This document shows, in pieces, positions 5,780 through 62,704 of a stretch of 64,000 nucleotides of DNA (position 1 is the stretch's first letter; each line of letters begins with the position of its first letter). This DNA comes from Paludibacteraceae bacterium (lineage in GTDB: Bacteria > Bacteroidota > Bacteroidia > Bacteroidales > Paludibacteraceae). The notes below the pieces were generated by a model that worked only from the letters and a program-made list of their open reading frames with translations, ran no database searches and was not told the DNA's origin. The translations under genes were made by a program, and so were the position numbers. Location of the stretch: positions 1 through 64,000 of the forward strand of contig JAKSLA010000006.1 in the NCBI GenBank assembly GCA_024401455.1, read 5' to 3'.

Positions 5780-5836
5780 TACTTTTCCTAAAAAAAGAAT
5801 GCAACCGAACAACGCGTCCGAATATTTTTCCGGCCG

Positions 5837-36975: not shown

Positions 36976-37009
36976 TTTTACCATCTTTTCAATATTTTGA
37001 ATAACCACC

Positions 37010-43461: not shown

Positions 43462-45933
43462 TCACCGAATTTCAAAACTCAATCCTCCATCTTCTCCCAA
43501 TCCAACATTTACACCACAGCCTACATTCAGTTCTCCAGCAAGAAGCATCTTAGAAATAGGACGTCGCAAATAATTGCGTATAACGCCCGCTACTTGCCTT
43601 GCTCCATATTTAGGCGTAAACCCTTTGAAAGCCAACATTTTTTTAGCCTCCTCGGTAATCTTCAAATCTATATTTTGAGCCTTCAACAACGTCCTAAATC
43701 CCTGAAACTGAATTTCAAATATCTGCATCAACATATCCTCCTTTATCGGAGAGAATGGAACAATTTCTGATAGACGAGCCAAAAATTCCGGACGGAAATA
43801 GGCGCCCATCACCTCCATCATCTGAATGGTCGTAGGTATCCTCCCCTCCTCCATCTCCCGTGATATCCACTCGCTACCCACGTTCGATGTGAAAATAATA
43901 ATTGAATTGGAGAAATCTCCTTCTTTTCCTAAACGGTCATGCATTCGCCCTTCGTCCAATATCTGTAGGAATATATCAAAAACGGAAGGATGGGCCTTTT
44001 CTATTTCGTCAAACAATACAACAGAATAAGGCTGTTGACGAATTTTATTCACCAACAAACCGCCTTCCTCATATCCCACATAACCCGGAGGGGCGCCATA
44101 AAGCAATGCGGCCGAATGTTCCTCCTTAAACTCAGACATATCGAATCGTATCATTGCCTTTTCATCATTGAACAAAGCCTCCGCTAAAGCCTTTGTCAAC
44201 TCCGTCTTTCCAGTTCCTGTCGGACCCAGAAAGAAAAACGAGCCAATAGGCTGCCCTTGCTTATTCATACCGCTTCGCGACTCCAATATTGCGTCCACTA
44301 AAGCCTTCAATGCTCTGTCTTGCCCAACAACTCTCTGACGGAGAATCTCTTCCATATTCATCAAACGATCCCTTTCCCCCGTCTGGATTTTACCGATAGG
44401 AATGCCTGTTTTGCTGGCCACGACGGAAGCGACGTGTTCCGAAACGATTCGTGAAAAAGGGGCTTTAGACAACACATCCAACTTTTTCTGCAAAGAAACC
44501 AATCGTTCATACAAAACTTTCGTTTCTTCGGGTTCATTTATTCGATAATCCAACATAGATTTGGCAAGCGGACTCATTCGTGCCAACATGTCCGACTCTA
44601 TCTTTAAGAGGGACGATTTCAAGTCATCATCTGACTTATTTTCTTCTGAACAAACCAGAGAATCTAACCTCTGCGCCAAAGAGCGAGATTCAGAAGCACC
44701 AACTTCATTCACCATCTTCACGGAAGCCATCGTCCTATCCAACAAGTCAATAGCCGAATCTGGCAGACATCTATCTTGGACATAGCGTTTTGCATAACGC
44801 ACGGCATCCCGTATGGCACTCTCCTCCACCTCTAATCGATGAAACATCTGGTAATCCCGCATTCGGAAACGCAACATCTCCTCAGCCTCATCTTCTGTGG
44901 GTTCTTTTATGCAAAGCGTTTCAAACATACGGCAAAAAGCAGTATCAGGCTCAATCAACTTTCTATACTCATCCGTTGTTGTCGTTCCTATTAGCGTAAA
45001 ATCCCCATTAGAGAGTTCAGATTTTAGTATATTCAACACGCCTGAATGACTCTGTTTATCATCAAGTAAGGTATGAATATCATCCACAAACAGAATGACG
45101 CGATCTATTTGACGAAGTTCTTTTACTATCGACTTCAATCGCTCTTCGACTTCACCTTTATAGGTTGCGCCAGCTATCAGCGCTCCTGTATCCAATTGCC
45201 AAACCTCCGCCGTTTCTAAAAATTTGGGAACCTTCCCCAAGGCGATATTATACACTAAACCATTCATCAAGGCACTTTTCCCTACACCAGCATCTCCGGT
45301 TATCATTACATTAGGCTTGGAAAATCTAGCAAGAATCTCTTCTATCTGCATCAATTCATTGTCTCTACACACTATAGACGTTACCTTCCCCGAACGATAC
45401 TCCTCTTTTTTATCAATGCAATACTTTTTTAAGGCCGTTACTTGCCTATTGTCTTTATCTGATTCATTCCCTTCCTTATAGGAGAACGAGCGTTCCGTTT
45501 GATTTGAATCTTGGGTAAAATATTCCAAGATTTCTTTCTCCCTTATGGGGAAAGATCGAAGTTGGTCAACCGAAAATGCGACCGTAGGCTTCGACATTGC
45601 ACAAAGGACACAGATGGGATTAATTTCCAACAAGCCCAAACCAAGTCGCACCTTATCCGCCTCTTCCATCGTTCTTTCTACCGCCACATCTGCCTCTATC
45701 TCCATCACTCCCAAATGTTTCTCACATTCGTCGATGCGAATTTCTGCCCATTCTTCCAAATAGGGAACATCCTTTCCTATAGAGCGAACAAACTCACCTA
45801 ACCCAACTTCCCGATGAAGCATAGCCTTCAACAAATGAGCAGGAGAATATTTGTCATTACCCAATTCTCGCGCCTCCGCCTTTGCAATCCGCACCGCAGA
45901 CTGCATCTCTTCATTCAAATTTATATATTCCAT
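43462..45933 (-). CDS. tssH: T6SS AAA+ ATPase TssH (ClpV)
   Basis: The 823-residue protein recycles the contracted TssB/TssC sheath. It has a Clp N-terminal domain (1-140), AAA module 1 with Walker A GDAGVGKSA at 213-221 and Walker B VILFVDDIHTLL, a middle region and AAA module 2 with Walker A GPTGTGKTE near 567 and Walker B SVVLFDEIEKAHPSVFDIFL, then a Clp C-terminal domain. It lacks the long ClpB coiled-coil insertion typical of disaggregases of 860 residues. The location at the end of the T6SS genes, behind the effector region, identifies it as the T6SS unfoldase. Confidence 0.92.
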   Translation of the reverse strand: MEYINLNEEMQSAVRIAKAEARELGNDKYSPAHLLKAMLHREVGLGEFVRSIGKDVPYLEEWAEIRIDECEKHLGVMEIEADVAVERTMEEADKVRLGLGLLEINPICVLCAMSKPTVAFSVDQLRSFPIREKEILEYFTQDSNQTERSFSYKEGNESDKDNRQVTALKKYCIDKKEEYRSGKVTSIVCRDNELMQIEEILARFSKPNVMITGDAGVGKSALMNGLVYNIALGKVPKFLETAEVWQLDTGALIAGATYKGEVEERLKSIVKELRQIDRVILFVDDIHTLLDDKQSHSGVLNILKSELSNGDFTLIGTTTTDEYRKLIEPDTAFCRMFETLCIKEPTEDEAEEMLRFRMRDYQMFHRLEVEESAIRDAVRYAKRYVQDRCLPDSAIDLLDRTMASVKMVNEVGASESRSLAQRLDSLVCSEENKSDDDLKSSLLKIESDMLARMSPLAKSMLDYRINEPEETKVLYERLVSLQKKLDVLSKAPFSRIVSEHVASVVASKTGIPIGKIQTGERDRLMNMEEILRQRVVGQDRALKALVDAILESRSGMNKQGQPIGSFFFLGPTGTGKTELTKALAEALFNDEKAMIRFDMSEFKEEHSAALLYGAPPGYVGYEEGGLLVNKIRQQPYSVVLFDEIEKAHPSVFDIFLQILDEGRMHDRLGKEGDFSNSIIIFTSNVGSEWISREMEEGRIPTTIQMMEVMGAYFRPEFLARLSEIVPFSPIKEDMLMQIFEIQFQGFRTLLKAQNIDLKITEEAKKMLAFKGFTPKYGARQVAGVIRNYLRRPISKMLLAGELNVGCGVNVGLGEDGGLSFEIR

Positions 45934-45961: not shown

Positions 45962-47038
45962 TTAAATTTCGCCATCATTCAGAAGTGACAAACCTCGCCA
46001 CTCTAACTCCTCCGTAATCAAAGATTCTATTATGTCTGGGAACCCAACAAAGTCAAAATAATTATGAGATCTAATAAAACTTAAGAAATCATCATTTTCA
46101 ACAAGCTCCACTCGGAATTCATTATGATTAGTCATTATGCCTGATTTATGACAATAATAGCTAACATAAGCTGCTATTTTCATACGTTCTGACAAAGAGA
46201 AGTCCTGTAAATAGAAAGGAGAATCCCCTCTAATAGAAGTTAAGACATCTGAATAGTAACAAATAAATAGTGCATTTTTATGAAACTCCAATTCTTCTAA
46301 ATTTTCACATAAATAACAAATCAAACCTTCATGTATATGCAAAATCCCATCAAAATCACGACGGACAAATAGACCATCGTATGCAAGTTTTTCTCTATTT
46401 CTATTTGAAAAATCATTCAACAGTTCAATTGCATTTTCTATAACTAAATTATTGATATCAACATTCTTATCGAAATCATATTTTTTACATAATTCAATTA
46501 ATAAACTAGGGGCATTATTCTCCAACCAAACAAATGACGATCTACTTTCATGGAAAATAAAATTGTTGAAATGAAAAGCTAAGAGTACTTTCGAATGATT
46601 GTTTTTTATCTCGACCGAATTTTCATTTCCAGCCAAAGATACTATTCCATAAAGGTTTGGACAAAAAACCAGAAATCTACCAATAGAATCATATACATAA
46701 GATTTCCAAAAATCGCCAATAACTGCACCATCAACCATTTGCATCTTTTGTTTTTGAAGTAACCTATCTAGTTTATTTCCTTCTATATAGACATACCGAC
46801 ATAACCCTTTCTTATACAAAACCTCATTGGATTCTATCGACAAATCGACGCCAAAAAACAGTTTAGAGTTTTTCTTAACATTATCCATATGTGGCTTTAA
46901 ATAAGCACATTTTTCTAATGCCAACCGGTATGCTTCCATCGCTAAATCGGTATACTTCTCTTGAAATTCAATTGGCATAACCTCATCACCAAAGGAATCT
47001 ATATTATCGTAATACATTTTCACGTCATCAATTTCCAT
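45962..47038 (-). CDS. Candidate T6SS immunity protein, no signal peptide (paralogue of the next)
   Basis: The 358-residue protein is unknown to me. It is clearly a paralogue of the lipoprotein encoded at 47060-48313: both share the order DVMPIEF/DDVMYIDF, a KLFFGVDL/KDFFGYNI segment, DFWKSYVYD/GFWRSFIYV, HIHEGLICYL/YIHKGLLSYL and ERMKIAAYV(S/I)YY near the end. This copy starts where the mature part of the other starts and has no signal peptide or lipobox, so it should stay in the cytoplasm. An upstream TTG at 47050 would add four residues only. The position right behind a peptidoglycan-acting effector suggests immunity or regulation. It is notably AT-rich. Confidence 0.7.
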   Translation of the reverse strand: MEIDDVKMYYDNIDSFGDEVMPIEFQEKYTDLAMEAYRLALEKCAYLKPHMDNVKKNSKLFFGVDLSIESNEVLYKKGLCRYVYIEGNKLDRLLQKQKMQMVDGAVIGDFWKSYVYDSIGRFLVFCPNLYGIVSLAGNENSVEIKNNHSKVLLAFHFNNFIFHESRSSFVWLENNAPSLLIELCKKYDFDKNVDINNLVIENAIELLNDFSNRNREKLAYDGLFVRRDFDGILHIHEGLICYLCENLEELEFHKNALFICYYSDVLTSIRGDSPFYLQDFSLSERMKIAAYVSYYCHKSGIMTNHNEFRVELVENDDFLSFIRSHNYFDFVGFPDIIESLITEELEWRGLSLLNDGEI

Positions 47039-47059
47039 TCCGCATATCAACCTTTTTAT

Positions 47060-48313
47060 TTAATACTGTCTCAACTTTTCTACCAAAAAAGAAAATCCCT
47101 CCAATCCGAAATATTCATTATCGCTCAAAAACTCAAGAAATACATTATTATCCATCATCGTTTTTACAAACATATCAGAGTTTGCGTATTCATTATACCT
47201 ATCAAAATAATATATTACATAGGCTGCTATTTTCATACGTTCTTCCTCAGTATATTCAACCAAAAGCTCAGAAGAGCCGTCAAACGAACCATAAACATCA
47301 TCTTTGAATACATTCCGCAAGTTATCGACCAACCAACTACTTTCGATTTTATAATCAACTAAATAACTCAATAATCCTTTATGAATATATAACTTTCCAT
47401 TACCATCATGCCCTACAAAAACATCTTTATATGCGGCCCTGATCAAGTCCACATTATCTCCATTTCCTATTTTCTCCAAAACATCATCTATGACTAACTT
47501 ATTGATTTCCGAATTAGAATCATAATGATAAACAAGGCACAAATCTTTCAAAAATTCTGATTTATTAGATAATAGCCATCGGAAAGATCCAATGTTATTG
47601 AAAAAGACATAATTACTTAAGTGATATGTCTCTTTAATTTGAGGAGCATTCCAAATAAAAGAAACTTTATTTCCGATTTTCATATATTTGCCGTTTATCG
47701 GATCTACTTCACAATTTTCAACAGCAACAATACCATTTATGGTTGGTTTTTTTACCAAAAAACCTCCCTCCCGAACATATATGAATGATCTCCAAAATCC
47801 TCCCAACAATGTATCGTTAACCATGTTCATGAATTTTTTTTGGGCTATACGTTCCTCATGAGCATTACTATCATCTATATACCTAGCCAAGCATACTTTA
47901 TACAAAATATCATTAGAGTCACATTCGATATTATAACCAAAAAAATCTTTTGACCTCAATTGAATGACATCTAATCCCGGCTTTTCATATCCCATTTTTT
48001 TCAAAGATTCTGAATAAGTTCGGATAGCATAATCAGAATATTTATCATCAAAATCAATATACATCACATCATCTGCTGTTTCATCGTAATTTGCATAATA
48101 ATCGACAATGTCTTGAGGATTAATTGTTATCATATCATACATAACAGAATCGTCCTTTTCGTAATTGATTACAATCTTTTCAACCATTGCAACTGTATCT
48201 GAAGCATTAATTACAGGTGACGCATTTTCCTGTATGCCAATTTGTTTTTTTTCATTACATGAAAAAAACATAACAATAAAAAATAAAGTACTTACTATTT
48301 TATTCATCTTCAA
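47060..48313 (-). CDS. Candidate T6SS immunity lipoprotein
   Basis: The 417-residue protein begins with a lipoprotein signal (NKIVSTLFFIVMFFSC, lipobox Cys at residue 19), so it should be anchored in the periplasm. The mature part is paralogous to the gene at 45962-47038 and otherwise unrecognised. Its start overlaps the stop of the M23 peptidase gene by 14 bases. An envelope-anchored protein encoded right after a wall-degrading T6SS effector is the normal arrangement for immunity against a periplasmic toxin, so I infer that it protects against the GH19/M23 effector. The gene is AT-rich relative to the core T6SS genes. Confidence 0.72.
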   Translation of the reverse strand: MKMNKIVSTLFFIVMFFSCNEKKQIGIQENASPVINASDTVAMVEKIVINYEKDDSVMYDMITINPQDIVDYYANYDETADDVMYIDFDDKYSDYAIRTYSESLKKMGYEKPGLDVIQLRSKDFFGYNIECDSNDILYKVCLARYIDDSNAHEERIAQKKFMNMVNDTLLGGFWRSFIYVREGGFLVKKPTINGIVAVENCEVDPINGKYMKIGNKVSFIWNAPQIKETYHLSNYVFFNNIGSFRWLLSNKSEFLKDLCLVYHYDSNSEINKLVIDDVLEKIGNGDNVDLIRAAYKDVFVGHDGNGKLYIHKGLLSYLVDYKIESSWLVDNLRNVFKDDVYGSFDGSSELLVEYTEEERMKIAAYVIYYFDRYNEYANSDMFVKTMMDNNVFLEFLSDNEYFGLEGFSFLVEKLRQY

Positions 48314-49013
48314 ACTTCGTTTTTCCTTGTTTGGTCCTGTTTCCTTTTTCTTTTCTCTCTTTTTGTTTTTTTAAATTTTCATTTGAATCCAGATTACTTC
48401 TTTTTATTTCTGAGACTGACCCATTATAGTCGTATATCTCTATTACCTTTTCTTGTTTACCTTGTTCATTTTTTATATATTTAATTTTGTACTGTTCTAC
48501 GTCAAGATACAACGAAGGATTACACCGATTAGTAAGCCCATCATGATATGTATCTTTACTTTTAATTTCAAAATGGATATGAGGACCACTTGTTCCTATA
48601 TCATTACCATATTTCACTCCTGTCCTTCCTGTAGTTCCAATCGGCTGACCAGAGGAAACAACTTGTCCAACACTAACAAAGATTTGTCTCATATGCATAT
48701 ATACTAAATACAAATCATTGGAACTCTTGTCAAAAGAAGGACCTTCTATTATTTCTCCAGAATGCAAAGGCTCATATTTTTTCCTTCTCTTTTGGAATAA
48801 TTCTAACGATTCTTGCGATATCTTTAAAACGATATACTGATTACAATCATCCTCATCATAATCCAATTTTTCTTGAGAAGATTTCTTAACTCTTGTTATT
48901 TCACCATCTACACATGCATAAGTCAAAGTTCCTTCTTCTGCGTAAATGTCTAAACCTTGATGAGTTCTCGAACCTCCTTTTTTCTTATCTAGGAATACCG
49001 CATTATAAGGCAA
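48300..49013 (-). CDS. M23 endopeptidase module, probably the C-terminal part of the GH19 effector
   Basis: The 237 residues after a TTG form a LytM/M23 zinc peptidase domain that cuts peptide crosslinks of peptidoglycan. Ligands: H18 and D22 in THQGLDIYA, H147 in GPHIHFE; H107 in YMHM and H145 complete the active site. A basic Lys/Glu tail of 40 residues follows. The frame is open upstream of the TTG and runs into the end of the GH19 gene, where dropping one T from a run of eight (49031-49038) gives WTDPVKNPQACFFSQNGNEL before PYNAVF. That stretch is what normally precedes an M23 core in such effectors. So a fused protein is likely. No signal peptide; delivery would be by the T6SS. Confidence 0.85.
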   Translation of the reverse strand: MPYNAVFLDKKKGGSRTHQGLDIYAEEGTLTYACVDGEITRVKKSSQEKLDYDEDDCNQYIVLKISQESLELFQKRRKKYEPLHSGEIIEGPSFDKSSNDLYLVYMHMRQIFVSVGQVVSSGQPIGTTGRTGVKYGNDIGTSGPHIHFEIKSKDTYHDGLTNRCNPSLYLDVEQYKIKYIKNEQGKQEKVIEIYDYNGSVSEIKRSNLDSNENLKKQKERKEKGNRTKQGKTKFEDE

Positions 49014-49014
49014 C

Positions 49015-52000
49015 TCATTCCCATTCTGAGAAAAAAAAGCAAGCTTGAGGGTTTTTAACTGGATCTGTCCAGAACCCTGATGTTTGATTACTCATCCATT
49101 CGCACCTATCCAATTCAAAATTTTTAGACATATTTTCTTTGAATCGACGTGCTTTCAGCTTGTAATTTGTTGTTTTCTCCCCTTTTTCATCCTTTATTTC
49201 GACATCATTACCCATCACTTTTGAACAATAAAAAAATACACTTTCTTCATTTCCTTTCCCATTGCATAAATGGTATTGATTAGCGTATTTTCCAAATAGG
49301 TAGCACATACTTGCAACCGTAGCTAACTCAATATTATTTTGAAATGAGTCACATCCGTCTTTCATTATATCTACAGTCTTGTCATAAAAAACATTGAGCA
49401 ATCGTTGGACCATCATATACAAACTTCTACCTGTTATTTGGACAAATCCACCTCCTCGATATCTCCATCCGTCACCACTATCTTCTGATCCATTTCCATT
49501 TGTTTTCGAGTACATAAAATTGAAAATCGACCTTTTTTTATCCAATTCATCTGTTTTGGAATAAATATCATCCAGTTTCTTCTTCATGCCTTGCTTATAC
49601 ACACGATTATCAGAAGAAACCTCTTTCTTTCCCGAGGTATCAATCTCCGATTTCCACTTTTTGTTTTCCCACTTACCTTGAAATATCTGACTCGGTTTAA
49701 CATTTTCCAAAGAAGATCTAGAATATATACCAGTCTCGGACACAGGAATCAAAGAATCGCCTGATTCCACAGAAACTTGAGCAAAAAAATAGGCTTTGAT
49801 CCAACACGTATCCATATGTAAACGACGCATATATTTGGTATATGTTTTCGCTACAATTTCTACATTTTTAGAAGATGCGTTAGGGAAAATTTTCTTTAGA
49901 CGTATAGCCATCTCTTCTGCAGACTCATGGCATCTAGGACATTTTATTCGAGTATTTTTGTCTATTTTTTTTTCTCTCTCAATCGTCTCCCCCACAACAA
50001 CTGGTGCCAATGTTGAAATCACACTTGAAACTTGGTCGTTATTGACAAGTATTAATTTCAACTGCTTCAAATAACTTCGACATTGGTTCCTTTTCTTTTC
50101 TTCTTTTTGTAATGACTCCAACAATTGGTCGGATTCCGCTCTTATAATGGTATTTAGTTTTTTGTAATCATACGGAGTTGAAGGATATGTGTATAGACAC
50201 TTTTCCCCATCATATATTTTAAAGAATACAAGCGTTGGGTGTTTCGAAGCCTCTCCTTCTGGAGCTGATACAACGACATAGTTGGTCACGCATCCGTCCT
50301 CATCTGGTGCATTCAGTTTCCCTTCTATCAATAATTGTGTTTCTCCATTCTTCCTATTCTGATAGTAACGTATAGTCAATCTTTTTCGAAGATCATCACT
50401 TACATTTACCAAAAACAATTGGATAGGGACCTGGGTTCCGAAATTTAAGACATCGTATAATGGACGCCCTTTCGAATTGGCAAAATAGCCTGACACATAA
50501 ACCTTATTAGTGACTTGTAAATACTTCCCCCAAGTTGCATAATAATATCCTTTCCGTTCGCCTTCCAAGGCTCTCATATCAGTCACTGACTCTGAAATAG
50601 GATTAGAGACACAAAAATATAGGTCCGCAAAATCACCAGAAAAACACTCTCCCTTAAATACCATAGATGTTTCGTCTGGTTTCAAATATGACCATAAGTT
50701 GGACTTTTCCGACACTTCAACATAAACCTCTCCATCTGCATTCAACTTCACACATTCGTCCAACTCCTCCACTTCTATTTTTTCGAACTTGTTGACATTC
50801 CACATTGTTTTATTATGAAGCCATAACGAAAGCCTTAACGTTGCCTTGCTTTCTTCTGTTTGAGCCCATGCTGGAATACATAAATGCAAATAAAACGATT
50901 GCCTAAAACCTATTTGCGATATGGGACGTTTCTTTCTGTCACAAAACTCCCAATATTTCACCTTCGGAGCCAAGACTTCAAAAGACTTTGCACTCGGTCC
51001 TCTTTCTCCCATCCAAACTTTGAGTTCGGCTAATCCCTCCTCCAAGAAACGGACCTTATAACAACCATTCAAGCACACAACTTGAAGGTTGTCTCCCTCC
51101 AATCGAATATTTCCGTCTCGAAACTTATCGTATTCTCCATATTTATAGTTCATAGTTAAATTATAATCTATGCCCTTAAAAAATTGATTGGAGACAGTAC
51201 TGACATCCAAATTCGTCACCTCGTTGGCAACTATCATCACTTGACATTTTGAGCCACTACTATTACGAGTTCGGACATGCGTATTTGTAAGATTAACCCC
51301 GACCGTATAATTCCCCTCTTCTTTGAATAGGCTAATAAACGAAGGTCCTTTTACCTCCGCCATTTTCTTGCCACCTTTACATACTGTCCAAACTGCATTT
51401 TGCATTTCAATTTTTGAGGAAACTGATGTTTCTGCCTCCCTTGTTTCATTCTCGTAATCTTTTTGCATCTCTGGATCAGCAAACTTCAATTTAAATGTCA
51501 AGGAAGAGCCAACCCGTAACAACGGAAGATTACTATTATTGTCAAAAACAACAGAGACAAAATCTTCCACGCCAAAAAACTTTGCAGACTTTGACTGAAT
51601 CGGTTTATTTTCAGTTTTTCCGTCCTTCATTCTATACAAGAATAACTCTACTGTATAAAATATCTCCGAATTACATGGAATGAAAGTCAATGATTGTTTT
51701 TCTAATTCACAGAAAAGATGATCCGAGACATCTTGACGATTTTCTCCTTCGCCCGCAAAGATTGAATATCTAATAAAATCACGAGTTTCATCAAAATCAT
51801 ACTTCATATCAACGGAAATTTTCACAGGAATTCCAGTTTTGACGTATTTAGTGTCATTCTCCCTTAACTTTTCATTTCCAACGGAAAGTGAAAGCATTGA
51901 ATTGTCCGACTCCACTTTGATTGTCAAAGAACACGAAGAATCGTAGGGTGGCTTCTTGTTTTTTTCCTTCACATATTCCCCCTTTGCAATCTTTCGAGCA

Positions 52001-52794
52001 ACATTTTTGTATTTCATCAAAAAAGAGTTACCCATTCCCTCTATGTAATATGTTCCTGTTTTTTGAAAAGGTATAGAAAAAGGTGACCCCACCAAACTAA
52101 AAAGATGTAATGAATGAACGAATGAAAACTTGGTTTTAGACTTATTATCTTTACTATCAACTTCTGCCTCACTCTTTTGGAACAAAACCCAACTAACAGG
52201 TTTATCATCAATACAATTACCATTTCTATCAAAGGCATGGAACATCAATCGAGAATTTGAACGGACAAACAGTTCCGGCATCTTTTTGAGTTCTTTCGTA
52301 CCCAAAAACACCTTAATAGAGGTCACTCCGAATTCAACATTGTTCTTACCTATAATAGTTTTGTCTGTTTTCTCGAGTACATACAAACTATTTGTCACAA
52401 CCTGCATTTCCTCCTCAAATTCAGACAAATCTATCATAGAAACAGATTGCTGTTGTCCATGATAGAGACACGTAATTTTACCGCCATATTTCGAGCATAT
52501 CATTTCGCTACTATCCAAAACCATATTTTCATAAGATTTTGTTGAGTCCCAATTTCCGCCACAATATTCACATAGCGGGGCTTGTTTATTCGGATTTAAA
52601 TTACATTGACCGAAAGGTGCAATCGGAACTTGAAAAGTGGCTTCATCTGTCGTAACAGCCGGTTTGCCTTGAACCATCACCCGTTGGTTTTTCGTCACAA
52701 CAATTGGGCAAGGGACCAACCCTTGATCACAAGAAAACAAGGCTCCTTGAACAGCATAAAAAGCTCCACTCTGACTATCCTTACTCTTAGACAT
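49015..52794 (-). CDS. T6SS effector: PAAR-like (DUF4280) N-terminus, Ig-like middle, GH19 lysozyme/chitinase-like C-terminus
   Basis: The 1259-residue protein opens with a DUF4280 PAAR-like domain (about 10-130): FYAVQGALFSCDQGLVPCPI, with cysteine pairs in LCEYCGG and MICSKYGGKITC, expected to cap the VgrG spike. Residues 150-900 are beta-rich repeats like Ig or filamin modules. From about 980 a GH19 fold follows: FFAQVSVESGDSLIPV with the catalytic Glu near 1009, and GWRYRGGGFVQITGRSLY near 1105. GH19 enzymes cut chitin or the peptidoglycan glycan chain; here the latter fits an antibacterial effector. The frame ends in FFFSEWE directly after a run of eight T; the M23 module follows in another frame. 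It lies downstream of vgrG and a small unknown gene. Confidence 0.88.
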   Translation of the reverse strand: MSKSKDSQSGAFYAVQGALFSCDQGLVPCPIVVTKNQRVMVQGKPAVTTDEATFQVPIAPFGQCNLNPNKQAPLCEYCGGNWDSTKSYENMVLDSSEMICSKYGGKITCLYHGQQQSVSMIDLSEFEEEMQVVTNSLYVLEKTDKTIIGKNNVEFGVTSIKVFLGTKELKKMPELFVRSNSRLMFHAFDRNGNCIDDKPVSWVLFQKSEAEVDSKDNKSKTKFSFVHSLHLFSLVGSPFSIPFQKTGTYYIEGMGNSFLMKYKNVARKIAKGEYVKEKNKKPPYDSSCSLTIKVESDNSMLSLSVGNEKLRENDTKYVKTGIPVKISVDMKYDFDETRDFIRYSIFAGEGENRQDVSDHLFCELEKQSLTFIPCNSEIFYTVELFLYRMKDGKTENKPIQSKSAKFFGVEDFVSVVFDNNSNLPLLRVGSSLTFKLKFADPEMQKDYENETREAETSVSSKIEMQNAVWTVCKGGKKMAEVKGPSFISLFKEEGNYTVGVNLTNTHVRTRNSSGSKCQVMIVANEVTNLDVSTVSNQFFKGIDYNLTMNYKYGEYDKFRDGNIRLEGDNLQVVCLNGCYKVRFLEEGLAELKVWMGERGPSAKSFEVLAPKVKYWEFCDRKKRPISQIGFRQSFYLHLCIPAWAQTEESKATLRLSLWLHNKTMWNVNKFEKIEVEELDECVKLNADGEVYVEVSEKSNLWSYLKPDETSMVFKGECFSGDFADLYFCVSNPISESVTDMRALEGERKGYYYATWGKYLQVTNKVYVSGYFANSKGRPLYDVLNFGTQVPIQLFLVNVSDDLRKRLTIRYYQNRKNGETQLLIEGKLNAPDEDGCVTNYVVVSAPEGEASKHPTLVFFKIYDGEKCLYTYPSTPYDYKKLNTIIRAESDQLLESLQKEEKKRNQCRSYLKQLKLILVNNDQVSSVISTLAPVVVGETIEREKKIDKNTRIKCPRCHESAEEMAIRLKKIFPNASSKNVEIVAKTYTKYMRRLHMDTCWIKAYFFAQVSVESGDSLIPVSETGIYSRSSLENVKPSQIFQGKWENKKWKSEIDTSGKKEVSSDNRVYKQGMKKKLDDIYSKTDELDKKRSIFNFMYSKTNGNGSEDSGDGWRYRGGGFVQITGRSLYMMVQRLLNVFYDKTVDIMKDGCDSFQNNIELATVASMCYLFGKYANQYHLCNGKGNEESVFFYCSKVMGNDVEIKDEKGEKTTNYKLKARRFKENMSKNFELDRCEWMSNQTSGFWTDPVKNPQACFFFSEWE
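49031..49038 (-). other. T8 homopolymer at the GH19/M23 junction
   Basis: Eight A on the plus strand, eight T in the coding direction. With eight, the GH19 frame stops after SEWE; with seven (or ten), it continues without a stop into the M23 peptidase. Candidate for a slippage site, a phase-variable tract, a mutation or an assembly error. Confidence 0.8.
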
Positions 52795-52797
52795 AAT

Positions 52798-53628
52798 TCA
52801 CTTTTTCTTTATACTGATACTGATTTGTTTATGGTAATCACTCTCCGACTTAGCATCCAAACTCCAATCTATAGAAAGCGGCACACCTTGATCATCTAAA
52901 AGCGACTCTGCATTTAAAATGACAGATAATGAATCGTCAGGAGCCAACTGCAAATACTGAAATATAGATTTCATATCAGACTCATCCTCATTCAATTGAC
53001 CCTTCATCCGTATTCGATTGTAACCACTCTCTTCTGATAGAATCCACTCTTCTGCAATGACACTCTTTGCCCGACCAAACAGATTATCCCAACTTGAGTT
53101 CTGGAACAAATTCTTTACTTCTCCAAAATCTTGGTAATACCCTCGAAAGAAAATCGAATAAAACAAATCCCGCTTAACACCAGACAAGAATAGATCTTCG
53201 GACTTTATCACATTGTCAAACTGTTCAATATAATCAGTCATACTATCCATTACTTGCGCCTCTTCGCTAATGAAAAAACGGTCAAGATACATCTTGCAAT
53301 GGTCCCATTTACGCAAAACATCATCTTTGTTTTTAATAGACCTCAACACTCCATCGTCTGTCAACGACAAATGCAAATCATTCATCACCTCCGCTGCCTT
53401 CACAAAACATTGTTCCACTGGGTTTTCGCAGAAACGTTTTCCATTAAACAAATAATCCGATCTCCGCACCTTTACGGTGTTTTCATTCTCAAAAAGAAGG
53501 TTCGCATGTCCAATAATCTCAGACCGTCTTCTCCCTTTAGAATATCGGCTCCCCTCTAATAGAACATTTTTCTGAATAGAATATTGCAATTCATCTAAAA
53601 AACATTTTATTTTTAACCTATTTTTCAT
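52798..53628 (-). CDS. Unknown protein between VgrG and effector, candidate loading adaptor
   Basis: The 276-residue product is not one I recognise. It has no signal peptide or membrane helix, is predicted mixed alpha/beta and contains an acidic middle part and a lysine-ending C-terminus (HKQISISIKKK). The spacing is very tight: 8 nt after vgrG and 3 nt before the effector. In other T6SSs, genes in this position encode adaptors (for example DUF4123 or DUF2169 proteins) that load a PAAR effector on VgrG. I see no similarity to those families, so adaptor function is inferred from position only. It could also be a second small effector component. Confidence 0.65.
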   Translation of the reverse strand: MKNRLKIKCFLDELQYSIQKNVLLEGSRYSKGRRRSEIIGHANLLFENENTVKVRRSDYLFNGKRFCENPVEQCFVKAAEVMNDLHLSLTDDGVLRSIKNKDDVLRKWDHCKMYLDRFFISEEAQVMDSMTDYIEQFDNVIKSEDLFLSGVKRDLFYSIFFRGYYQDFGEVKNLFQNSSWDNLFGRAKSVIAEEWILSEESGYNRIRMKGQLNEDESDMKSIFQYLQLAPDDSLSVILNAESLLDDQGVPLSIDWSLDAKSESDYHKQISISIKKK

Positions 53629-53636
53629 AAATCAAC

Positions 53637-55481
53637 CTAAAACAGATTTACCTTACCTTTGCTTTGCACATCGACATCACCTCCCGTTGCCAAGATTAAA
53701 TTATCATCAGTACTATCAATTTCCACTTTTTTTGATTGGAGGTTAACTGATGTTTTTGCATTCACCTCAAAAAAATCAGAACTATACGACACTCCCTCCA
53801 CAGCACTCACTTGGAGAGAATTAGAAGAGACTTCTAATTCCACTCCTGACAAAACCTTCAAATCCTCTTCTGCATTGACAATCATTGTTCCTTTAGAACT
53901 AATGGTCATAGCCTCTCCTGCGTCAATACTTATGTTTTTCGCAAGCAACGATATTGAGTTCTGTGACGAAATAGTAACATTCATACCACTGGTGTCCAAT
54001 TGAATGGTGTTCCCATTTTTATCACTTATCGTTATGCCATATTCACCATTCTCATCATCATTGAAAATGATTTGATGTCCTCCACGAGTTTTAATGGATT
54101 TGACTGCGTTCCCGTCACCACCTCCGGCTGCCGTGCTTCCTCTATACAAACTTCCAATCACATATGGACGATTAGGATCTCCATACTCAAAGCCCACCAT
54201 AACTTGGTCTCCCTTTTCGGGGATGAAAACAAAGCCTCTATTTCGGGGTACATCTACACTCCCACCTCCATTGGGCATCAAGATACGAATCCAATTTGTA
54301 CTCTGCCATTTAGGCTTCTGCCATTCAAACTGTACTTGTACACGCCCCAACCCCATGGGGTCTTCATTATCAGAAACAACGGCCAATTCCGGATAAGCTT
54401 TTGGGAAGGAGATTTTCAGCGGCAGCGATTCCACACATTCGGGAATAGCCTTAAAATAATTGCTGTAATTACCGTTCTTATCTATCCGGTGAACTAATGC
54501 AACGACTCGGAATCGCCCTAACGCCCCTACATTCATCTTAGGAGGGAACGCAATTTCAACAATCCCGCCTAAACGAAAATTACAAGTTCTTGTTTCTCCC
54601 TCCACGTTATACATCACGCCGGCTAACATCTGCTGGCGTAAGTCCATCATGTCTTTCAAACTATACGATGAAGAAAGAGAGGCGGCACTCGGCTGTACAG
54701 CCATCTCTTCAAAAATCGTATCCGCCCGTTTCTCTATCTCACGAAGCACACCTGATGCAGAAAAGTTTCCTTCATTCGTAGTATAAACATCTTCTTCGAA
54801 AAAATAATCGTATGCAGATGTTCGATGAGGGACACCTTGGGCCGACGTGCGTAAACTGATAATATCCTTATCAAAGAAGAGAGGTTCAACCTCCCCCTTG
54901 TTCGCGACCCCAAAATGAATTTTTTTCCCATCATAATAAAATGCTTCTCCGAAAATAGAAGAGAGCCGATTCAGAAAAGAAAAAACACTCTCATCATAGC
55001 GCATCAAGAATGGGAGTACCCCTTTAAAATTCGGTTCACATGAAAGGGGGATGCCAACCTTCTCAACCAATTGAGTCACAACATCCATCAACTGACAATC
55101 TACAAATGAATCTCGCCCTTTTACACCATCCAATTTTACGATATCGCCAGACCCAATAATATGTATGCGATTGCTGCGATGACAAGTTCCCATGTCATGG
55201 GAAGTCTCCCAAGCCTCAATCTGAACATCCGTCACAACACCAGAAAACTCATATGGAATGCCAGCATCCAAATGTTCAAAACGAATCAACAAATTTGACC
55301 CTATATGAGCCACTTGATCTCCAAGCGACACTTGCCACAGTTCATCGTGAGACATATGCTCCTTCACCACTTCAAATCGGTGGCAGGCATTCATTTCCTG
55401 CTCCAAGACCAATGATTCAAAAGATATTTCTTCTCCGTCTAATCGTATCTTCGGCCTTACAGGATTAAGATTCTGTATCAT
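53637..55481 (-). CDS. tssI: T6SS spike protein VgrG (TssI)
   Basis: The 614-residue protein forms the trimeric puncturing tip. It has the gp27-like base domain (residues 1-370), the gp5-like OB-fold that begins near NEDPMGLGRVQVQFEWQ (about 375) with VGFEYGDPNRPYVIGSLYRG near 455, and a C-terminal beta-helix of repeated short strands (NGNTIQLDTSGMNVTISSQN and on). The C-terminus shows no extra enzyme domain, so killing activity must come from the PAAR-type effector encoded two genes later. Confidence 0.93.
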   Translation of the reverse strand: MIQNLNPVRPKIRLDGEEISFESLVLEQEMNACHRFEVVKEHMSHDELWQVSLGDQVAHIGSNLLIRFEHLDAGIPYEFSGVVTDVQIEAWETSHDMGTCHRSNRIHIIGSGDIVKLDGVKGRDSFVDCQLMDVVTQLVEKVGIPLSCEPNFKGVLPFLMRYDESVFSFLNRLSSIFGEAFYYDGKKIHFGVANKGEVEPLFFDKDIISLRTSAQGVPHRTSAYDYFFEEDVYTTNEGNFSASGVLREIEKRADTIFEEMAVQPSAASLSSSYSLKDMMDLRQQMLAGVMYNVEGETRTCNFRLGGIVEIAFPPKMNVGALGRFRVVALVHRIDKNGNYSNYFKAIPECVESLPLKISFPKAYPELAVVSDNEDPMGLGRVQVQFEWQKPKWQSTNWIRILMPNGGGSVDVPRNRGFVFIPEKGDQVMVGFEYGDPNRPYVIGSLYRGSTAAGGGDGNAVKSIKTRGGHQIIFNDDENGEYGITISDKNGNTIQLDTSGMNVTISSQNSISLLAKNISIDAGEAMTISSKGTMIVNAEEDLKVLSGVELEVSSNSLQVSAVEGVSYSSDFFEVNAKTSVNLQSKKVEIDSTDDNLILATGGDVDVQSKGKVNLF

Positions 55482-55501: not shown

Positions 55502-56890
55502 TTAACTTTGAGCATATTCACTATTCCAACTTGCCTCATCATCTCCTTTGGTCCCATCCAACTTGATGACAAAACTTTTCGCCGGGAAATATGGGGTGAT
55601 ATGAATATCCAGATATACACGGTCTTTTTGATTAGGGTCTCGTTCCAAACGCATAATCTTGGAACGCTCAATCAAACGGTCAGGCCCTTGAATATTATCC
55701 AAGAACTTTACAATCTGCGACCTCAAATCACGTTCTGTCATTCCGCTCCAATTCTCAAATGACCTTCGATTCAAAAAGTCAAAAAGAACTTTTGTGATAT
55801 AATCGAAAACGCGCACCACCGAATAGGTCTGTAAACCAAGGTTATCTCCATTAAAAAGTGTCTTTGCTGAAAATGCCATCACCTTGCCATATTCATTCAC
55901 CATCGGCACCAGTCCCATTGAATCTAATTGAGAAATCTCACTTTTTCGAAGAGGGAATGCTACAGACTCCACCTCGTTCAACCCACCATACTTCTTTCCT
56001 GCCGTCACTTGAGACATTAATGTCGAATATACCCTACCAGCCAAGGCAGCCGCAGGTGAGACATGCAAATCTTCTGTTTCGCCAATCTCTTTATATGCGG
56101 GACGTCCCACCAACCAATTACAGCACATCACCGTATTACTTCGGTAAGCATCCCCTCCAGCCAAATTAGCAGAATAGAACATATCTACCACATCGTCAGG
56201 ATTTTCCAAATCCGCAAAATCAGTAAAAAGCATTACCTTGTTCGAATTAGCAATCTTAGCCCATTTTTCGACCACCATATTAGAACCTAAATAGCCAGGA
56301 ATGACCAACAACGAGTAGTTGTCTCGCAAATCCAATCTATCATAATTCTGTTTCAATTCATCGGCCACATAATCAATAAAACGAGAATTGTCTAAATCAG
56401 TAATCTGTTCTGGCGATGCATTGACAATCGTAACATTCGATAATTTATCCACCTCCGTATTCTTGAAAAACAATTGGACAGAACGATACGAACGCTCTAA
56501 ATCCTTCACGGCATCAACGGCAATCATTTGGTTCTTAGTCAACAAATCACCAACACTATCGGCATTTGCCTTACATTGGCCAACCATATCAGAAACCGAC
56601 TGAGTACCAGTCAACAATTCAAGCCACAAATCAATCTTGCTGGCCAACTCCTTCCTTTCGTTAGCTTTCTGCTCCTCCACTAAAAACATTTTTTTTCTCG
56701 CCTTCCGCTCCGGATTAACATTTTGAATGCCATCAATTACCGACTCCAAAAATCCGAAACCTCCATAACGTGACAACCCGTTTATTGCCTGCTCCAATGC
56801 TTGTTGCGAAAAAACGGCGATATTTTCTTTAATTCCAGCCTGATAGGGCGTATTCTGCTCCGCCTGCTGCATAACTTCTCTTTCCGACAT
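55502..56890 (-). CDS. tssC: T6SS sheath large subunit TssC
   Basis: The 462-residue protein is of the Bacteroidota TssC type. It has the conserved central part with VTIVNASPEQITDLDNSRFIDYV, YSLLVIPGYLGSNM, a long helical N-terminus and the C-terminal DIHITPYFPAKSFVIKLDGT. It pairs with TssB to form the contractile sheath recycled by TssH. It lies 4 nt after tssB. The order Hcp-tssB-tssC-vgrG matches T6SSiii clusters. Confidence 0.92.
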   Translation of the reverse strand: MSEREVMQQAEQNTPYQAGIKENIAVFSQQALEQAINGLSRYGGFGFLESVIDGIQNVNPERKARKKMFLVEEQKANERKELASKIDLWLELLTGTQSVSDMVGQCKANADSVGDLLTKNQMIAVDAVKDLERSYRSVQLFFKNTEVDKLSNVTIVNASPEQITDLDNSRFIDYVADELKQNYDRLDLRDNYSLLVIPGYLGSNMVVEKWAKIANSNKVMLFTDFADLENPDDVVDMFYSANLAGGDAYRSNTVMCCNWLVGRPAYKEIGETEDLHVSPAAALAGRVYSTLMSQVTAGKKYGGLNEVESVAFPLRKSEISQLDSMGLVPMVNEYGKVMAFSAKTLFNGDNLGLQTYSVVRVFDYITKVLFDFLNRRSFENWSGMTERDLRSQIVKFLDNIQGPDRLIERSKIMRLERDPNQKDRVYLDIHITPYFPAKSFVIKLDGTKGDDEASWNSEYAQS

Positions 56891-57420: not shown

Positions 57421-57813
57421 TTATGCGACTGGCCAATTTTCTTCGTACTGAGCGCCGCCAATCTTAATAATCTGAGCTGAAATCGTGATGCGCAAAGTCA
57501 TCGGCGCATTACCAACGATGTCAATTCCCTCTTCAAAATCAATAACATACGCATTTTCGAAAGACAATTCTTTCATTTTTGACTCTTCGTCGCCTTTCTT
57601 AAAGACGATGCTTCCACTAAACGGTTTGAATTGGTTGACCATATGCTCCAAAATGGTAGTGTCTGCCGTGGATTCCACACGCACAGTAATACGTCCACCA
57701 TAAATGTTAGATGACGGACGTCCTTTTGAGTCAACATCACGATGTAGTTCGTACTTGCATTCAAGCACATCATACTCCTTTCCTCCTAAATTCAAAGATG
57801 ATCTAAAAGCCAT
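57421..57813 (-). CDS. tssD: T6SS tube protein TssD (Hcp), main copy
   Basis: The 130-residue protein fits Bacteroidota Hcp: AFRSSLNLGGKEYDVLECKY at the start, RDVDSKGRPSSNIYGGRITV and a C-terminal TLRITISAQIIKIGGAQYEENW. Hexamers stack into the inner tube. It is immediately upstream of tssB, the usual place of the structural Hcp, and has its own -7 element, TATGTTTG, with a 12-bp palindrome in the promoter region. Two more Hcp-like genes are upstream. Confidence 0.92.
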   Translation of the reverse strand: MAFRSSLNLGGKEYDVLECKYELHRDVDSKGRPSSNIYGGRITVRVESTADTTILEHMVNQFKPFSGSIVFKKGDEESKMKELSFENAYVIDFEEGIDIVGNAPMTLRITISAQIIKIGGAQYEENWPVA

Positions 57814-57852
57814 ACTTAAAAAATTAAATTAAAACATTATTAAATTATTACT

Positions 57853-57880
57853 CAAACATATACGATTGGCCAATCTAATA
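57853..57880 (-). promoter_or_regulatory. Candidate hcp promoter with palindromic operator
   Basis: On the minus strand a perfect -7 box TATGTTTG (57860-57853) stands 40 bp before the hcp ATG. A perfect 12-bp palindrome GATTGGCCAATC lies at 57864-57875, in what would be the promoter spacer. The -33 box is poor. It could be a repressor site for the hcp-tssB-tssC-vgrG-effector transcript. Confidence 0.45.
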
Positions 57881-57936
57881 TCGAGTATTTCTATTTTTTC
57901 AATGATTTGTTTTCTCAGAAGCAAACAGAACTTGTT

Positions 57937-58365
57937 TCATTCAATCCAACCAGACTCTAATAAGATTCCGTTGAAAGATATTTCCTTTGCTGAGACAAGT
58001 AACGATGCATGCGTACCTTTTCCCATATTGACTCTTTGTTTGAGATACACACACGCCGCTTCCACAAAAGCGATACGCAACGGCGCCGTTCCCGTCTGAT
58101 TCTTAAAAACGACTTCGCCACTCTTACGCATCCAACGACTCGTTGCCCACTGCAGCAACAATTCATCTGGAAGCTGAGAAAGTGTAAGATTCAACTTTGC
58201 CCCTTTCACCTCAAACTGAGGCTCTCCTCGATTGTCAACTTGCTGCATTAAAGAAGTTGAAAATGCGGCAATAGGATAAATCTTACCCATAAAGTGCAAT
58301 TCAGCAAAAACATTTCCGTCAGGTTGAGAGAACGGTGACAACAATGAACTAATATCGTATTTCAT
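57937..58365 (-). CDS. Hcp-like TssD paralogue, diverged
   Basis: The 142-residue product has the Hcp pattern with N-terminal beta strands, a central DNRGEPQFEVKGAKLNLTLSQLP-type segment (compare DENGKPQGEVRAGKLTLSFANLP of the next gene) and a C-terminal VNMGKGTHASLLVSAKEISF. It is more diverged than the copy at 58377. Extra TssD-like proteins are common in T6SSiii loci and may form special tube positions or carry particular effectors; its role is not known. Confidence 0.8.
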   Translation of the reverse strand: MKYDISSLLSPFSQPDGNVFAELHFMGKIYPIAAFSTSLMQQVDNRGEPQFEVKGAKLNLTLSQLPDELLLQWATSRWMRKSGEVVFKNQTGTAPLRIAFVEAACVYLKQRVNMGKGTHASLLVSAKEISFNGILLESGWIE

Positions 58366-58376
58366 ACCCTACCCGT

Positions 58377-58820
58377 TTATACATTTTTCCATTCATTTTC
58401 CACCTTCACTTCTCCCAACAGAAGATTTTTTGCCACTATCGAAAGAACCGTTGAACAATAATTCTCATCGTCCTCCTTATAGTTAATATCAAGGGCTACG
58501 CAAGCACCATTAGAGAAAGATACCTTCTGTATAGGCATTCCGTCCATATCAAAAACCACAATATTGCCGTCTTTATATTTTCGAGAATTGAGAATCCACT
58601 CCAACATCTCCGTCGTCGGTAAATTGGCAAATGAGAGCGTCAATTTCCCAGCACGCACTTCTCCCTGTGGCTTACCATTCTCATCCGTATCCTGTACTAT
58701 ATCATAGGAAAAGTCAAACAATTCAATTTTTGGCTCTCCCTTATCTACCAAAAGAGGACTTCCCTGACCTAAGAGACCATAAGTCGCACTTAACTGCAAA
58801 ACACTTTTATATCCAAACAT
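58377..58820 (-). CDS. Hcp-like TssD paralogue
   Basis: The 147-residue product shows the type VI tube protein pattern: FGYKSVLQLSATYGLLG, LFDFSYDIVQDTDENGKPQG, EVRAGKLTLSFANLPTTEML and a C-terminal NYCSTVLSIVAKNLLLGEVK. It is separated by 11 nt from the next Hcp-like gene and by 43 nt from tssR. Together there are three TssD-family genes in a row. Confidence 0.85.
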   Translation of the reverse strand: MFGYKSVLQLSATYGLLGQGSPLLVDKGEPKIELFDFSYDIVQDTDENGKPQGEVRAGKLTLSFANLPTTEMLEWILNSRKYKDGNIVVFDMDGMPIQKVSFSNGACVALDINYKEDDENYCSTVLSIVAKNLLLGEVKVENEWKNV

Positions 58821-58863: not shown

Positions 58864-61302
58864 CTACGGCAAACAATCCGCCTCTATTCGATAGTAGATC
58901 TGACCATTAAACTCAAACCTGTTAGCAGAAGCAATTGCCTCATCTAACAGCTTCTCTTTACGCAAAAAATACTCTTGTAGTTCATCAATTTCTCTATCTA
59001 CAATTCTTTTTTTCTTCCTGAGATCTTTTAATACATACCGATTCATCTCCTTATTGAAAGAGGGTAAAGAACAAATAACCTGCTGATTTTCAGAAAGCGT
59101 CATACGTTTTAGATTTCGCTTACTTTGAGAATAGACCTTCTCATCTTGTGCCCATTCAATGAATGCATTACGCATTTTCTTTCGAGATTTTGAAGTATTC
59201 AAATACCTATGAGGAAGAGAATCTGACGCTGCCAATTGCGTATGTTCTTCTAAATCCAAGCAAGACCGACCTCTCTCCTTTGTGGATTTTTTGGATGACG
59301 AATATTTATAGTCCACCCTATACTTGGTTACATCTTGCATATAAGATTTAATCCTATTCAACTCTTTTTCTGTCAAGAAAAGGAAATATTTTCCCTTCTC
59401 CATGTTTGCTTTTTCTACTTGTAAATTCACAGAGAATCTTGTATAAGGATCCAATGTGGACATCGGTTGAAACAGAATCGGATTTAATTCAAATTTGCCA
59501 TCTATTCCATTTAATTCCAACCAAGTAGGATACATAGAAGTCCGTCCGACACCCGCTTGCTTAAATGCCTTCTGAATTCGTGACAGTATGTCTTCATTAT
59601 CCGAGACTATCTCCGCCACTATCGAATCGACAACAGAAACAAGCATGTCTGGCGGCAAAAGTTCCTTTTTCTTAGGGAATAAAATCCAACCTTGCCACAT
59701 ACTATTGCGAGGATAGTCCAAGGCATATACATTCTCCGATATTTCACGATATTGGTTATTCATTGACAACTGTTCCGAATGGACCAAATAATGACGTTTT
59801 TTTTGACTGAGTTTAGCAGACGAACGGCTAATCATATCTTCCACTTGGAGAACAAAATTATTAAACGAATTCCCTTGATCAGAATAAATTTGACACCCTA
59901 CCAAACGAGCATTCAACTCAACTAAGTTATCAATAACAGATGATTCTACTTGAGATTTATAATTTCCATTTTCTCCTATTAAAACAAATACATTACACTC
60001 TTCCTTATAATCTGACACCCAACGAAAAGATTGTTTCAAGGCTTTCCAAGCATCTCCACTAAATGAAACAGGACGATTAATTAATCTGTCACCATATCGT
60101 TCTAAAGAAGTCAACACCGTATCAATATCAGTACTCAAAGGAAAAGATCGCATATTTTTACCATCGTTTTCAAATCCGATTTCATATCCTAATCGAAACG
60201 TCATATTAGATTCATGCTTTCTAAATATCTCTGCCAAATGCCGAAACGAAGAGGCTAACTGACCGAACTTATCAAAAACTTGCCTTTGATCAGAAAAGAC
60301 TAACATTACATTGATGTGCTTTCTATCTAAAGTCATCTTATCTAACATTGGGCGTCGAATAGGCGCACCTGAAAGACCAAACACAAAATTCCGTTTATCA
60401 TCCATCAATGGAACATTTACGGTCGTACGAACGACAGACAAACTATCATACTGATTACAAATAGAGTAAATTGGATGCCACCCCTTAAAATCAGGTAATT
60501 CTGATGCCTCAAAATTCTCTTCGTGCAACAAACTTGAAACATTCACATCCTCTTTCCAAGCACTCTCAAAAGGGACCTCTTTATAGTTCCAATAGAGATA
60601 CTCCCCTAATGGCATAACCAACGAAGATGATACCCACCCAGCAACCATCGACGAAGCATTTTCTGGCGTAAAACTTTCTTTTCCCACTACAAGACATTTA
60701 CGTTTATCAACACTTTTTTTAGCCAAGAAAATGGGTTGTTGAAATGGTATTTGAGCTTTCGGAGTCAATAACTCTGGCTCATGAAAAAGTACCACCGAAT
60801 TTTCCGAGAAAAAGTCCGAACTGCGCACAATCGGATTCGTATCCTTCACCATCGTCATCATCTTGATGACAAAGCCAGTTGCAACATCCGTAGCCGGCCG
60901 AGAAGAGAGAAGCAGATTTTCTTTATGCATCCACCCATAGTATTCCACCTTAGATTTATCCTTAATCTGGCCATTCTCAAAAAATTTCGGATCAAACTTC
61001 ACCAACTTCAAGAAATCGCCCTTCTCTCCAATCACAGCAAATGGCTCCAAAAACGCTGCTTCCTTCATTTGTACTTTCCCGCCTGGATTATAGAACGTTG
61101 CATTCCTATTCCTATCAGAATAGACAATCCAAGGAGTACGTTTATCTACCGAATTGGGTACAGCCACTTCGCCACAACAATAATTTCGGCTATACTCTTT
61201 CGGGGTCTTCTTCACTTTCGTAAAATAATTGATTGGGGAACAGCCCACCAACCATAGAGAAGAAAGCAACAAAACAAAAAATATCTTCACCATCTTATTC
61301 AT
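58864..61302 (-). CDS. tssR: T6SSiii envelope protein TssR, lipoprotein
   Basis: The 812-residue protein has a lipoprotein signal (VLLLSSLWLVGC, Cys 21), so it should reach the periplasm or outer membrane. The middle part (about 330-490) with INVMLVFSDQRQVFDKFG and NVFVLIGENGNYKSQVE resembles a VWA-type fold, and the C-terminus is helical and basic. Size and position fit TssR, one of the proteins (TssN-TssR) that replace the TssJLM membrane complex in Bacteroidota. Its ATG overlaps the PKD gene stop by four bases. Confidence 0.75.
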   Translation of the reverse strand: MNKMVKIFFVLLLSSLWLVGCSPINYFTKVKKTPKEYSRNYCCGEVAVPNSVDKRTPWIVYSDRNRNATFYNPGGKVQMKEAAFLEPFAVIGEKGDFLKLVKFDPKFFENGQIKDKSKVEYYGWMHKENLLLSSRPATDVATGFVIKMMTMVKDTNPIVRSSDFFSENSVVLFHEPELLTPKAQIPFQQPIFLAKKSVDKRKCLVVGKESFTPENASSMVAGWVSSSLVMPLGEYLYWNYKEVPFESAWKEDVNVSSLLHEENFEASELPDFKGWHPIYSICNQYDSLSVVRTTVNVPLMDDKRNFVFGLSGAPIRRPMLDKMTLDRKHINVMLVFSDQRQVFDKFGQLASSFRHLAEIFRKHESNMTFRLGYEIGFENDGKNMRSFPLSTDIDTVLTSLERYGDRLINRPVSFSGDAWKALKQSFRWVSDYKEECNVFVLIGENGNYKSQVESSVIDNLVELNARLVGCQIYSDQGNSFNNFVLQVEDMISRSSAKLSQKKRHYLVHSEQLSMNNQYREISENVYALDYPRNSMWQGWILFPKKKELLPPDMLVSVVDSIVAEIVSDNEDILSRIQKAFKQAGVGRTSMYPTWLELNGIDGKFELNPILFQPMSTLDPYTRFSVNLQVEKANMEKGKYFLFLTEKELNRIKSYMQDVTKYRVDYKYSSSKKSTKERGRSCLDLEEHTQLAASDSLPHRYLNTSKSRKKMRNAFIEWAQDEKVYSQSKRNLKRMTLSENQQVICSLPSFNKEMNRYVLKDLRKKKRIVDREIDELQEYFLRKEKLLDEAIASANRFEFNGQIYYRIEADCLP

Positions 61303-62700: not shown

Positions 62701-62704
62701 AAAA

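What the first reader, a model, noticed from the sequence alone, without database searches (positions are those of the whole stretch)
48300..52794. Split PAAR-GH19-M23 effector with a T8 slip site
Seen: the GH19 frame ends in FFFSEWE directly after eight T (49031-49038). If one T is removed, the frame continues without a stop through WTDPVKNPQACFFSQNGNEL and PYNAVF into the M23 peptidase. The annotated M23 start would be a TTG with no upstream signal, only 17 residues before the first zinc ligand, too short for the usual N-terminal strand of the domain. Known: PAAR-like proteins with wall-hydrolase C-termini are Bacteroidota T6SS effectors. Inferred: a bifunctional toxin that cuts glycan and crosslinks, either broken, wrongly assembled, phase-variable, or expressed in two forms (PAAR-GH19 alone and the fusion) through slippage on U8.
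Basis: partly seen in the sequence, partly recalled or inferred. Interest (0 to 1): 0.82.

Follow-up and report, generated by a model that had tools for sequence, protein, structure and literature searches.

The report
Recently split bacterial wall-cutting weapon gene
A gut bacterium carries a gene for a two-bladed wall-cutting weapon that its relatives keep in one piece but that is cut in two here at a run of eight T's, most likely a recent accident and not a built-in switch.

Summary
The 1259-residue PAAR-like (DUF4280)/GH19-like ORF (49015-52794, minus) stops just after T8 (49031-49038); an M23 frame runs on to 48300. The two pieces align end to end with one uninterrupted ORF in relatives: residues 1-1257 and 1259-1500 of a 1502-residue horse-gut ortholog. 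Sixteen of 16 relatives readable across the junction keep GH19-like and peptidase parts in one frame, including 5 of 5 with M23. The split is therefore secondary.

A conserved, programmed slip site is not supported: no M23-bearing relative has a run longer than 5 near the junction, and a T8 in this ORF is expected from codon content. The M23 piece shows no decay, so the break is recent or a consensus error. In 377 kb of this assembly it is the only clear coding break at a run of 8 or more; 32 other runs lie in frames open for 200 codons, 10 of them by a stricter rule. A minority fused product from RNA-polymerase slippage remains possible.

The wider find is a family of two-enzyme T6SS effectors with exchangeable C-terminal wall enzymes, each followed by a lipoprotein-like candidate immunity gene.

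The parts
49015..52794 (-). ORF A, 1259 aa: DUF4280 (PAAR-like) N-terminus and GH19-like C-terminal part; ends just after the T8
52453..52752 (-). DUF4280 (PAAR-like) match, residues 15-114
   Evidence: Pfam PF14107, E 1.2e-12
49393..49902 (-). GH19/endolysin-like stretch (span of the PHROG 181 match; the domain probably reaches further towards 49150)
   Evidence: PHROG 181 E 2.1e-23; profile to PDB 8p8e, 4ok7
49031..49038 (-). run of eight T at the junction of the two frames
48300..49028 (-). ORF B, M23 peptidase frame read from the first whole codon after the run (frame open from 49091)
48546..48722 (-). Peptidase_M23 profile match
49011..49013 (-). TTG that an ORF caller takes as the M23 start; not supported as the ancestral start
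47060..48313 (-). lipoprotein-like gene overlapping the end of the M23 frame; candidate immunity gene (inferred)
45962..47050 (-). paralog of the previous gene without a lipoprotein-type signal by eye; second candidate immunity gene (inferred)
52798..53628 (-). 276-aa gene between vgrG and the effector, no Pfam match; homologues at the same place in relatives; possible adaptor (inferred)
53637..55481 (-). VgrG
55502..56890 (-). TssC
57421..58820 (-). three TssD (Hcp) genes
58864..61302 (-). TssR
62200..63211 (-). two TssO-like genes
43462..45933 (-). ClpB/ClpV-like ATPase

Best explanation
This is a spike-tip effector gene of a T6SS(iii) in a Paludibacteraceae gut bacterium. In intact relatives it makes one protein: a DUF4280 cap that sits on VgrG, a GH19-type lysozyme domain and a C-terminal M23 endopeptidase. 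Together they would cut both the sugar strands and the peptide crosslinks of a rival's wall (inferred), while a lipoprotein encoded directly downstream would protect the producer (inferred). In this genome the gene is split by a private change in a homopolymer, most likely a real and recent replication-slippage mutation. As written the gene makes a PAAR-GH19 protein without M23, which may still be delivered and active (inferred); the M23 stretch is an undecayed remnant. Shown: architecture, ancestral fusion, privacy of the run, lack of decay, T6SS context. Inferred: enzyme activities, delivery, immunity, and that the break exists in living cells.
For: Single uninterrupted ORF in 15 of 15 full-length relatives plus 1 contig-edge partial. 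The pieces map to 1-1257 and 1259-1500 of the ortholog. The longest run near the junction is 5 in 5 of 5 M23-bearing relatives, against 8 here. The M23 piece is as constrained as the GH19 part (lineage-private changes 10 window versus 7 ortholog in M23, 13 versus 20 in GH19; dN/dS about 0.067 and 0.061) and keeps both ligand motifs. Of the 7 runs of 8 or more in 26 syntenic ORFs, 6 leave their ORF open; the other 25 ORFs have an unsplit counterpart in a relative, by eye (one, 35869-37008, has a different C-terminal tail). Across 377,409 bases of this assembly, 32 other distinct runs lie in frames open for at least 200 codons, 10 of them with at least 60 open codons on each side, against 1 clear break. 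In a congener (G002) the effector body is gone but the lipoprotein gene remains, a precedent for effector loss at this locus.
Against: No reads: a consensus error at one run cannot be excluded, and lack of decay fits an error equally well. The assembly is a draft of 119 contigs, 5.28% contaminated. The relative-rate counts are small and synonymous sites are near saturation (pS 0.63-0.69), so dN/dS is rough. The run control is loose: a 200-codon frame can be open by chance, and by the strict rule only 10 other runs remain.
Confidence: 0.48

Rival explanations
1. Consensus or assembly error: the living cells have the uninterrupted fused gene, and one base of the run was called wrongly.
For: Draft assembly; the M23 piece shows no decay; fused state in 16 of 16 readable relatives; homopolymers are where such errors fall (general knowledge).
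Against: Errors at runs are not widespread in this assembly: 32 other runs of 8 or more lie in open frames, 10 by the strict rule, including an A9 in the same ORF. Sequencing method unknown.
Confidence: 0.29
2. Leaky or functional transcriptional slippage on U8: the gene yields mostly PAAR-GH19 and a minority of the fusion.
For: E. coli RNA polymerase gave about 10% rescue on T8 in a gfp reporter (PMC6260861, section 19). A T6SS core gene, C. rodentium tssM1, is rescued this way on A11, with both forms needed (PMC4256274, abstract and sections 6 and 12). The M23 piece is still constrained.
Against: The run is absent from 5 of 5 M23-bearing relatives, so it is no conserved device. A T8 is expected by codon content. 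Behaviour of a Bacteroidota polymerase on U8 was not examined. The downstream frame is not the one a -1 ribosomal slip would reach (from coordinates).
Confidence: 0.13
3. Phase variation: the run length flips between generations and switches the M23 domain on and off.
For: The run sits exactly between two otherwise intact domains.
Against: Run absent from relatives; T8 is short beside known phase-variable tracts (recalled); no strain data.
Confidence: 0.08
4. Two genuine separate genes, with M23 starting at the TTG.
For: The stop of ORF A and the TTG lie next to each other.
Against: Residues before the TTG in the M23 frame match the ortholog (QNGNEL in both); 5 of 5 M23-bearing relatives are fused.
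Confidence: 0.02

Closest known systems
Bifunctional T6SS peptidoglycan effectors Tae17 (A. baumannii) and TseP (A. dhakensis)
   Same: One effector with a glycan-cutting and a peptide- or amide-cutting wall enzyme (PMC11796386 abstract; PMC11893102 passages, which also mention Tse4).
   Different: Those are lytic transglycosylase-amidase and amidase-lysozyme proteins of Proteobacteria; here a DUF4280 cap is fused to GH19-like plus M23 in a T6SS(iii) locus, and the gene is split.
WHIX effectors with two toxic domains
   Same: A secretion module that can carry GH19-type, M23 or MepA/M15-like wall enzymes, sometimes two at once (PMC12135965 passages).
   Different: Toxic domains sit on the two sides of WHIX; here the N-terminus is DUF4280 and both enzymes follow in tandem. 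WHIX was not searched for here.
DUF4280 / PAAR_H proteins
   Same: PAAR-like N-terminus (PMC8651086 and PMC11854122 passages).
   Different: The passages seen describe no GH19-M23 fusion.
Citrobacter rodentium tssM1 transcriptional frameshift
   Same: A T6SS gene interrupted at a homopolymer with the rest in another frame (PMC4256274).
   Different: A11 there with demonstrated slippage; T8 here, in an effector and not a core gene, with no evidence of slippage.

Membership tests
Bacteroidota T6SS(iii) effector | lies in a T6SS(iii) gene cluster near vgrG | tested here: met
   VgrG, TssC, TssD x3, TssR, TssO, ClpB/ClpV-like
Bacteroidota T6SS(iii) effector | PAAR-like (DUF4280) N-terminus | tested here: met
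   PF14107 E 1.2e-12
Bacteroidota T6SS(iii) effector | adjacent gene fit for periplasmic immunity | tested here: met
   lipoprotein-like N-terminus, by eye, in the gene directly downstream in 17 of 17 effector loci examined, window included
Bacteroidota T6SS(iii) effector | T6SS-dependent export, and toxicity neutralised by the neighbour | not testable with these tools
   needs experiment
M23 peptidase | Pfam M23 above cut-off, HxxxD and HxH ligand motifs | tested here: met
   59.9 bits versus 28.7; HQGLD and HIHFE
GH19 (endolysin / chitinase class I type) | Pfam PF00182 match in the window protein | tested here: not met
   no match at E up to 1 in the window piece; weak matches below cut-off in relatives L053, L093, L090
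GH19 (endolysin / chitinase class I type) | profile similarity to solved GH19-type lysozymes and a conserved Glu in VESG | tested here: met
   8p8e 5.4e-18, 4ok7 1.3e-15; Glu of VESG at least 90% conserved; catalytic role and GH19 label of 4ok7 recalled
Programmed transcriptional-slippage gene | slippery run conserved among orthologs | tested here: not met
   longest run near the junction 5 in 5 of 5 M23-bearing relatives
Programmed transcriptional-slippage gene | RNAs of more than one run length, two protein products | not testable with these tools
   no RNA or protein data
Phase-variable gene | run length varies among cells or strains | not testable with these tools
   one genome per species, no reads; a viral-contig scan found no relative

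The most novel reading that the evidence does not exclude
A newly born two-form T6SS effector: the private U8 run lets RNA polymerase slip, so the cell loads mostly PAAR-GH19 tips and a minority of PAAR-GH19-M23 tips, and selection now keeps both. It would be the effector counterpart of the tssM1 case.
Probability: 0.1. Interest if true: 0.7.

Novelty: new variant of a known kind. Interest (0 to 1): 0.36.

Why it matters
It shows in gut Bacteroidales a family of spike-tip effectors that pair a GH19-type lysozyme with an exchangeable second wall enzyme (M23, a second metallopeptidase-like domain, or YkuD). The split copy is a natural test of whether one blade is enough. If slippage does restore a minority of the full protein, it would show how a two-form effector can arise from a single homopolymer change.

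Tried and rejected
Conserved slip site: rejected, because the run is private and expected by chance. Canonical -1 ribosomal frameshift: rejected from the frame relation. Separate M23 gene with a TTG start: rejected. Pervasive homopolymer errors in the assembly: not seen, but a single error cannot be excluded. A second broken-run signature in L107 lies between two divergent ORFs and was set aside as non-coding. The second metallopeptidase-like C-terminal domain (9 rows, H..G...D and H..H.H invariant) found no credible solved relative (one hit at E 0.036, a His-tagged antitoxin, taken as chance); the MepA/M15-like label is by motif and recalled. Viral contigs held no relative. Literature: no paper on homopolymer phase variation of a T6SS effector stood out in the listing, and no DUF4280-GH19-M23 effector in the listings (titles and abstract starts only). 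Not examined or not counted among relatives: G002 L050 (82-aa stub), L091 (N-terminus at a contig end), L055 (a secreted-looking GH19-like protein without DUF4280), and the weak hits to short M23 or endolysin-like ORFs.

Full report
What is there. On the minus strand, ORF A (52794-49015, 1259 aa) runs into eight T's (49038-49031) and stops four codons later; a second frame, open from 49091 to 48300, carries an M23 peptidase. Pfam gives DUF4280 for the N-terminus of A (E 1.2e-12) and M23 for B (E 2.8e-16). The GH19 label is right in kind but needs a profile: Pfam gives nothing for the window piece, while a profile of 11 rows finds solved endolysins of GH19 type and PHROG 181 matches 11 of 11 rows.

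Where it sits. The neighbours are VgrG, TssC, three TssD, TssR, two TssO-like and a ClpB/ClpV-like ATPase, a T6SS(iii) cluster of Bacteroidota. The order vgrG, 276-aa gene, effector, lipoprotein-like gene, second homologue is kept in both orthologous loci.

Is the split ancestral? No. A search of 150 relatives found matches in 12, one of 358 family genomes in 67, many of them weak hits to ordinary M23 genes, and one of 393 genomes of the order in 5 at E up to 1e-8; the sets overlap. From these I read 15 full-length relatives and one contig-edge partial. In 16 of 16 the GH19-like part and the C-terminal enzyme are in one frame with no internal stop (GH19-like in L045 is judged by eye). In the closest ortholog the window pieces cover residues 1-1257 (67% identity) and 1259-1500 (83%) of 1502. 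An alignment with the pieces as separate rows shows them meeting inside a conserved WTDPVKNPQAC..SQNG linker. Residues before the TTG match the ortholog, so the TTG is not the start.

What the second domain is elsewhere. Five relatives have M23 (L057, L056, L045, L103, L090). Nine have another domain with invariant H..G...D and H..H.H, without a credible solved relative. Two have YkuD (L092 above cut-off, L104 just below). So the general architecture is DUF4280, GH19-like, exchangeable wall enzyme. In 17 of 17 effector loci examined the next gene has a lipoprotein-like N-terminus by eye, as expected of immunity to a periplasmic toxin (inferred).

Why the run is probably not a device. Near the junction the longest run is 5 in 5 of 5 M23-bearing relatives. 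Shuffling synonymous codons of ORF A gives a mean of 0.98 T-runs of 8 or more. The M23 frame is not the one a -1 ribosomal slip would reach.

Real or error. The M23 piece has not decayed: lineage-private changes are 10 (window) versus 7 (ortholog), dN/dS about 0.067, close to the GH19 part (13 versus 20, 0.061), though synonymous sites are near saturation. That fits a recent break or a consensus error equally. In 26 syntenic ORFs, 6 of 7 runs of 8 or more leave their ORF open and the other 25 ORFs have an unsplit counterpart by eye. In 377,409 bases of this assembly 33 distinct runs, this site included, lie in frames open for at least 200 codons; by a strict rule 10 others do; one clear break, this one, and one non-coding borderline case were found. 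Errors are therefore not pervasive, but one cannot be excluded.

Could the cell still make the fusion? E. coli polymerase gave about 10% rescue on T8 in a reporter (PMC6260861 section 19), and C. rodentium tssM1 lives by such slippage on A11 (PMC4256274 abstract and sections 6 and 12). A minority fused product is thus plausible as leakage. No RNA or protein evidence exists here.

Likely consequence. As written, the cell makes a PAAR-GH19 tip with one enzyme. In Tae17 the glycan-cutting activity mattered more for killing E. coli (PMC11796386 abstract), so a one-blade effector may still work (inferred). In congener G002 the effector is reduced to an 82-aa DUF4280 stub next to an intact lipoprotein-like gene, which suggests that effectors at this locus are lost while protection is kept.

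Verdict. The slip-site idea is unsupported but not excluded as leakage. The effector family is a new variant of known two-enzyme T6SS wall effectors.

Noticed in passing
L050 (G002:C139) 4982-6592: Effector reduced to an 82-aa DUF4280 stub, followed by a lipoprotein-like gene homologous to the window's; effector lost, candidate immunity kept.
   Followed up: partly
L046, L047, L048, L049, L051, L052, L053, L054, L093: Same effector family with another C-terminal domain, invariant H..G...D and H..H.H (metallopeptidase-like by motif), no credible solved relative.
   Followed up: partly
L092 2121-6896 and L104 2280-6161: DUF4280 effectors with a C-terminal YkuD domain (L104 just below Pfam's cut-off).
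   Followed up: partly
window 52798-53628: 276-aa gene without Pfam match between vgrG and the effector; homologues in several effector loci; possible adaptor or chaperone.
   Followed up: no
window 45962-48313: Two tandem homologous genes after the effector, the first lipoprotein-like, the second without such a signal by eye.
   Followed up: no
window 49965-49973: An A9 run (coding strand) in the same ORF A that does not interrupt the frame.
   Followed up: yes
window 39099-40978: Two HU-like genes (recalled label), the larger with a long acidic stretch, beside the T6SS cluster.
   Followed up: no
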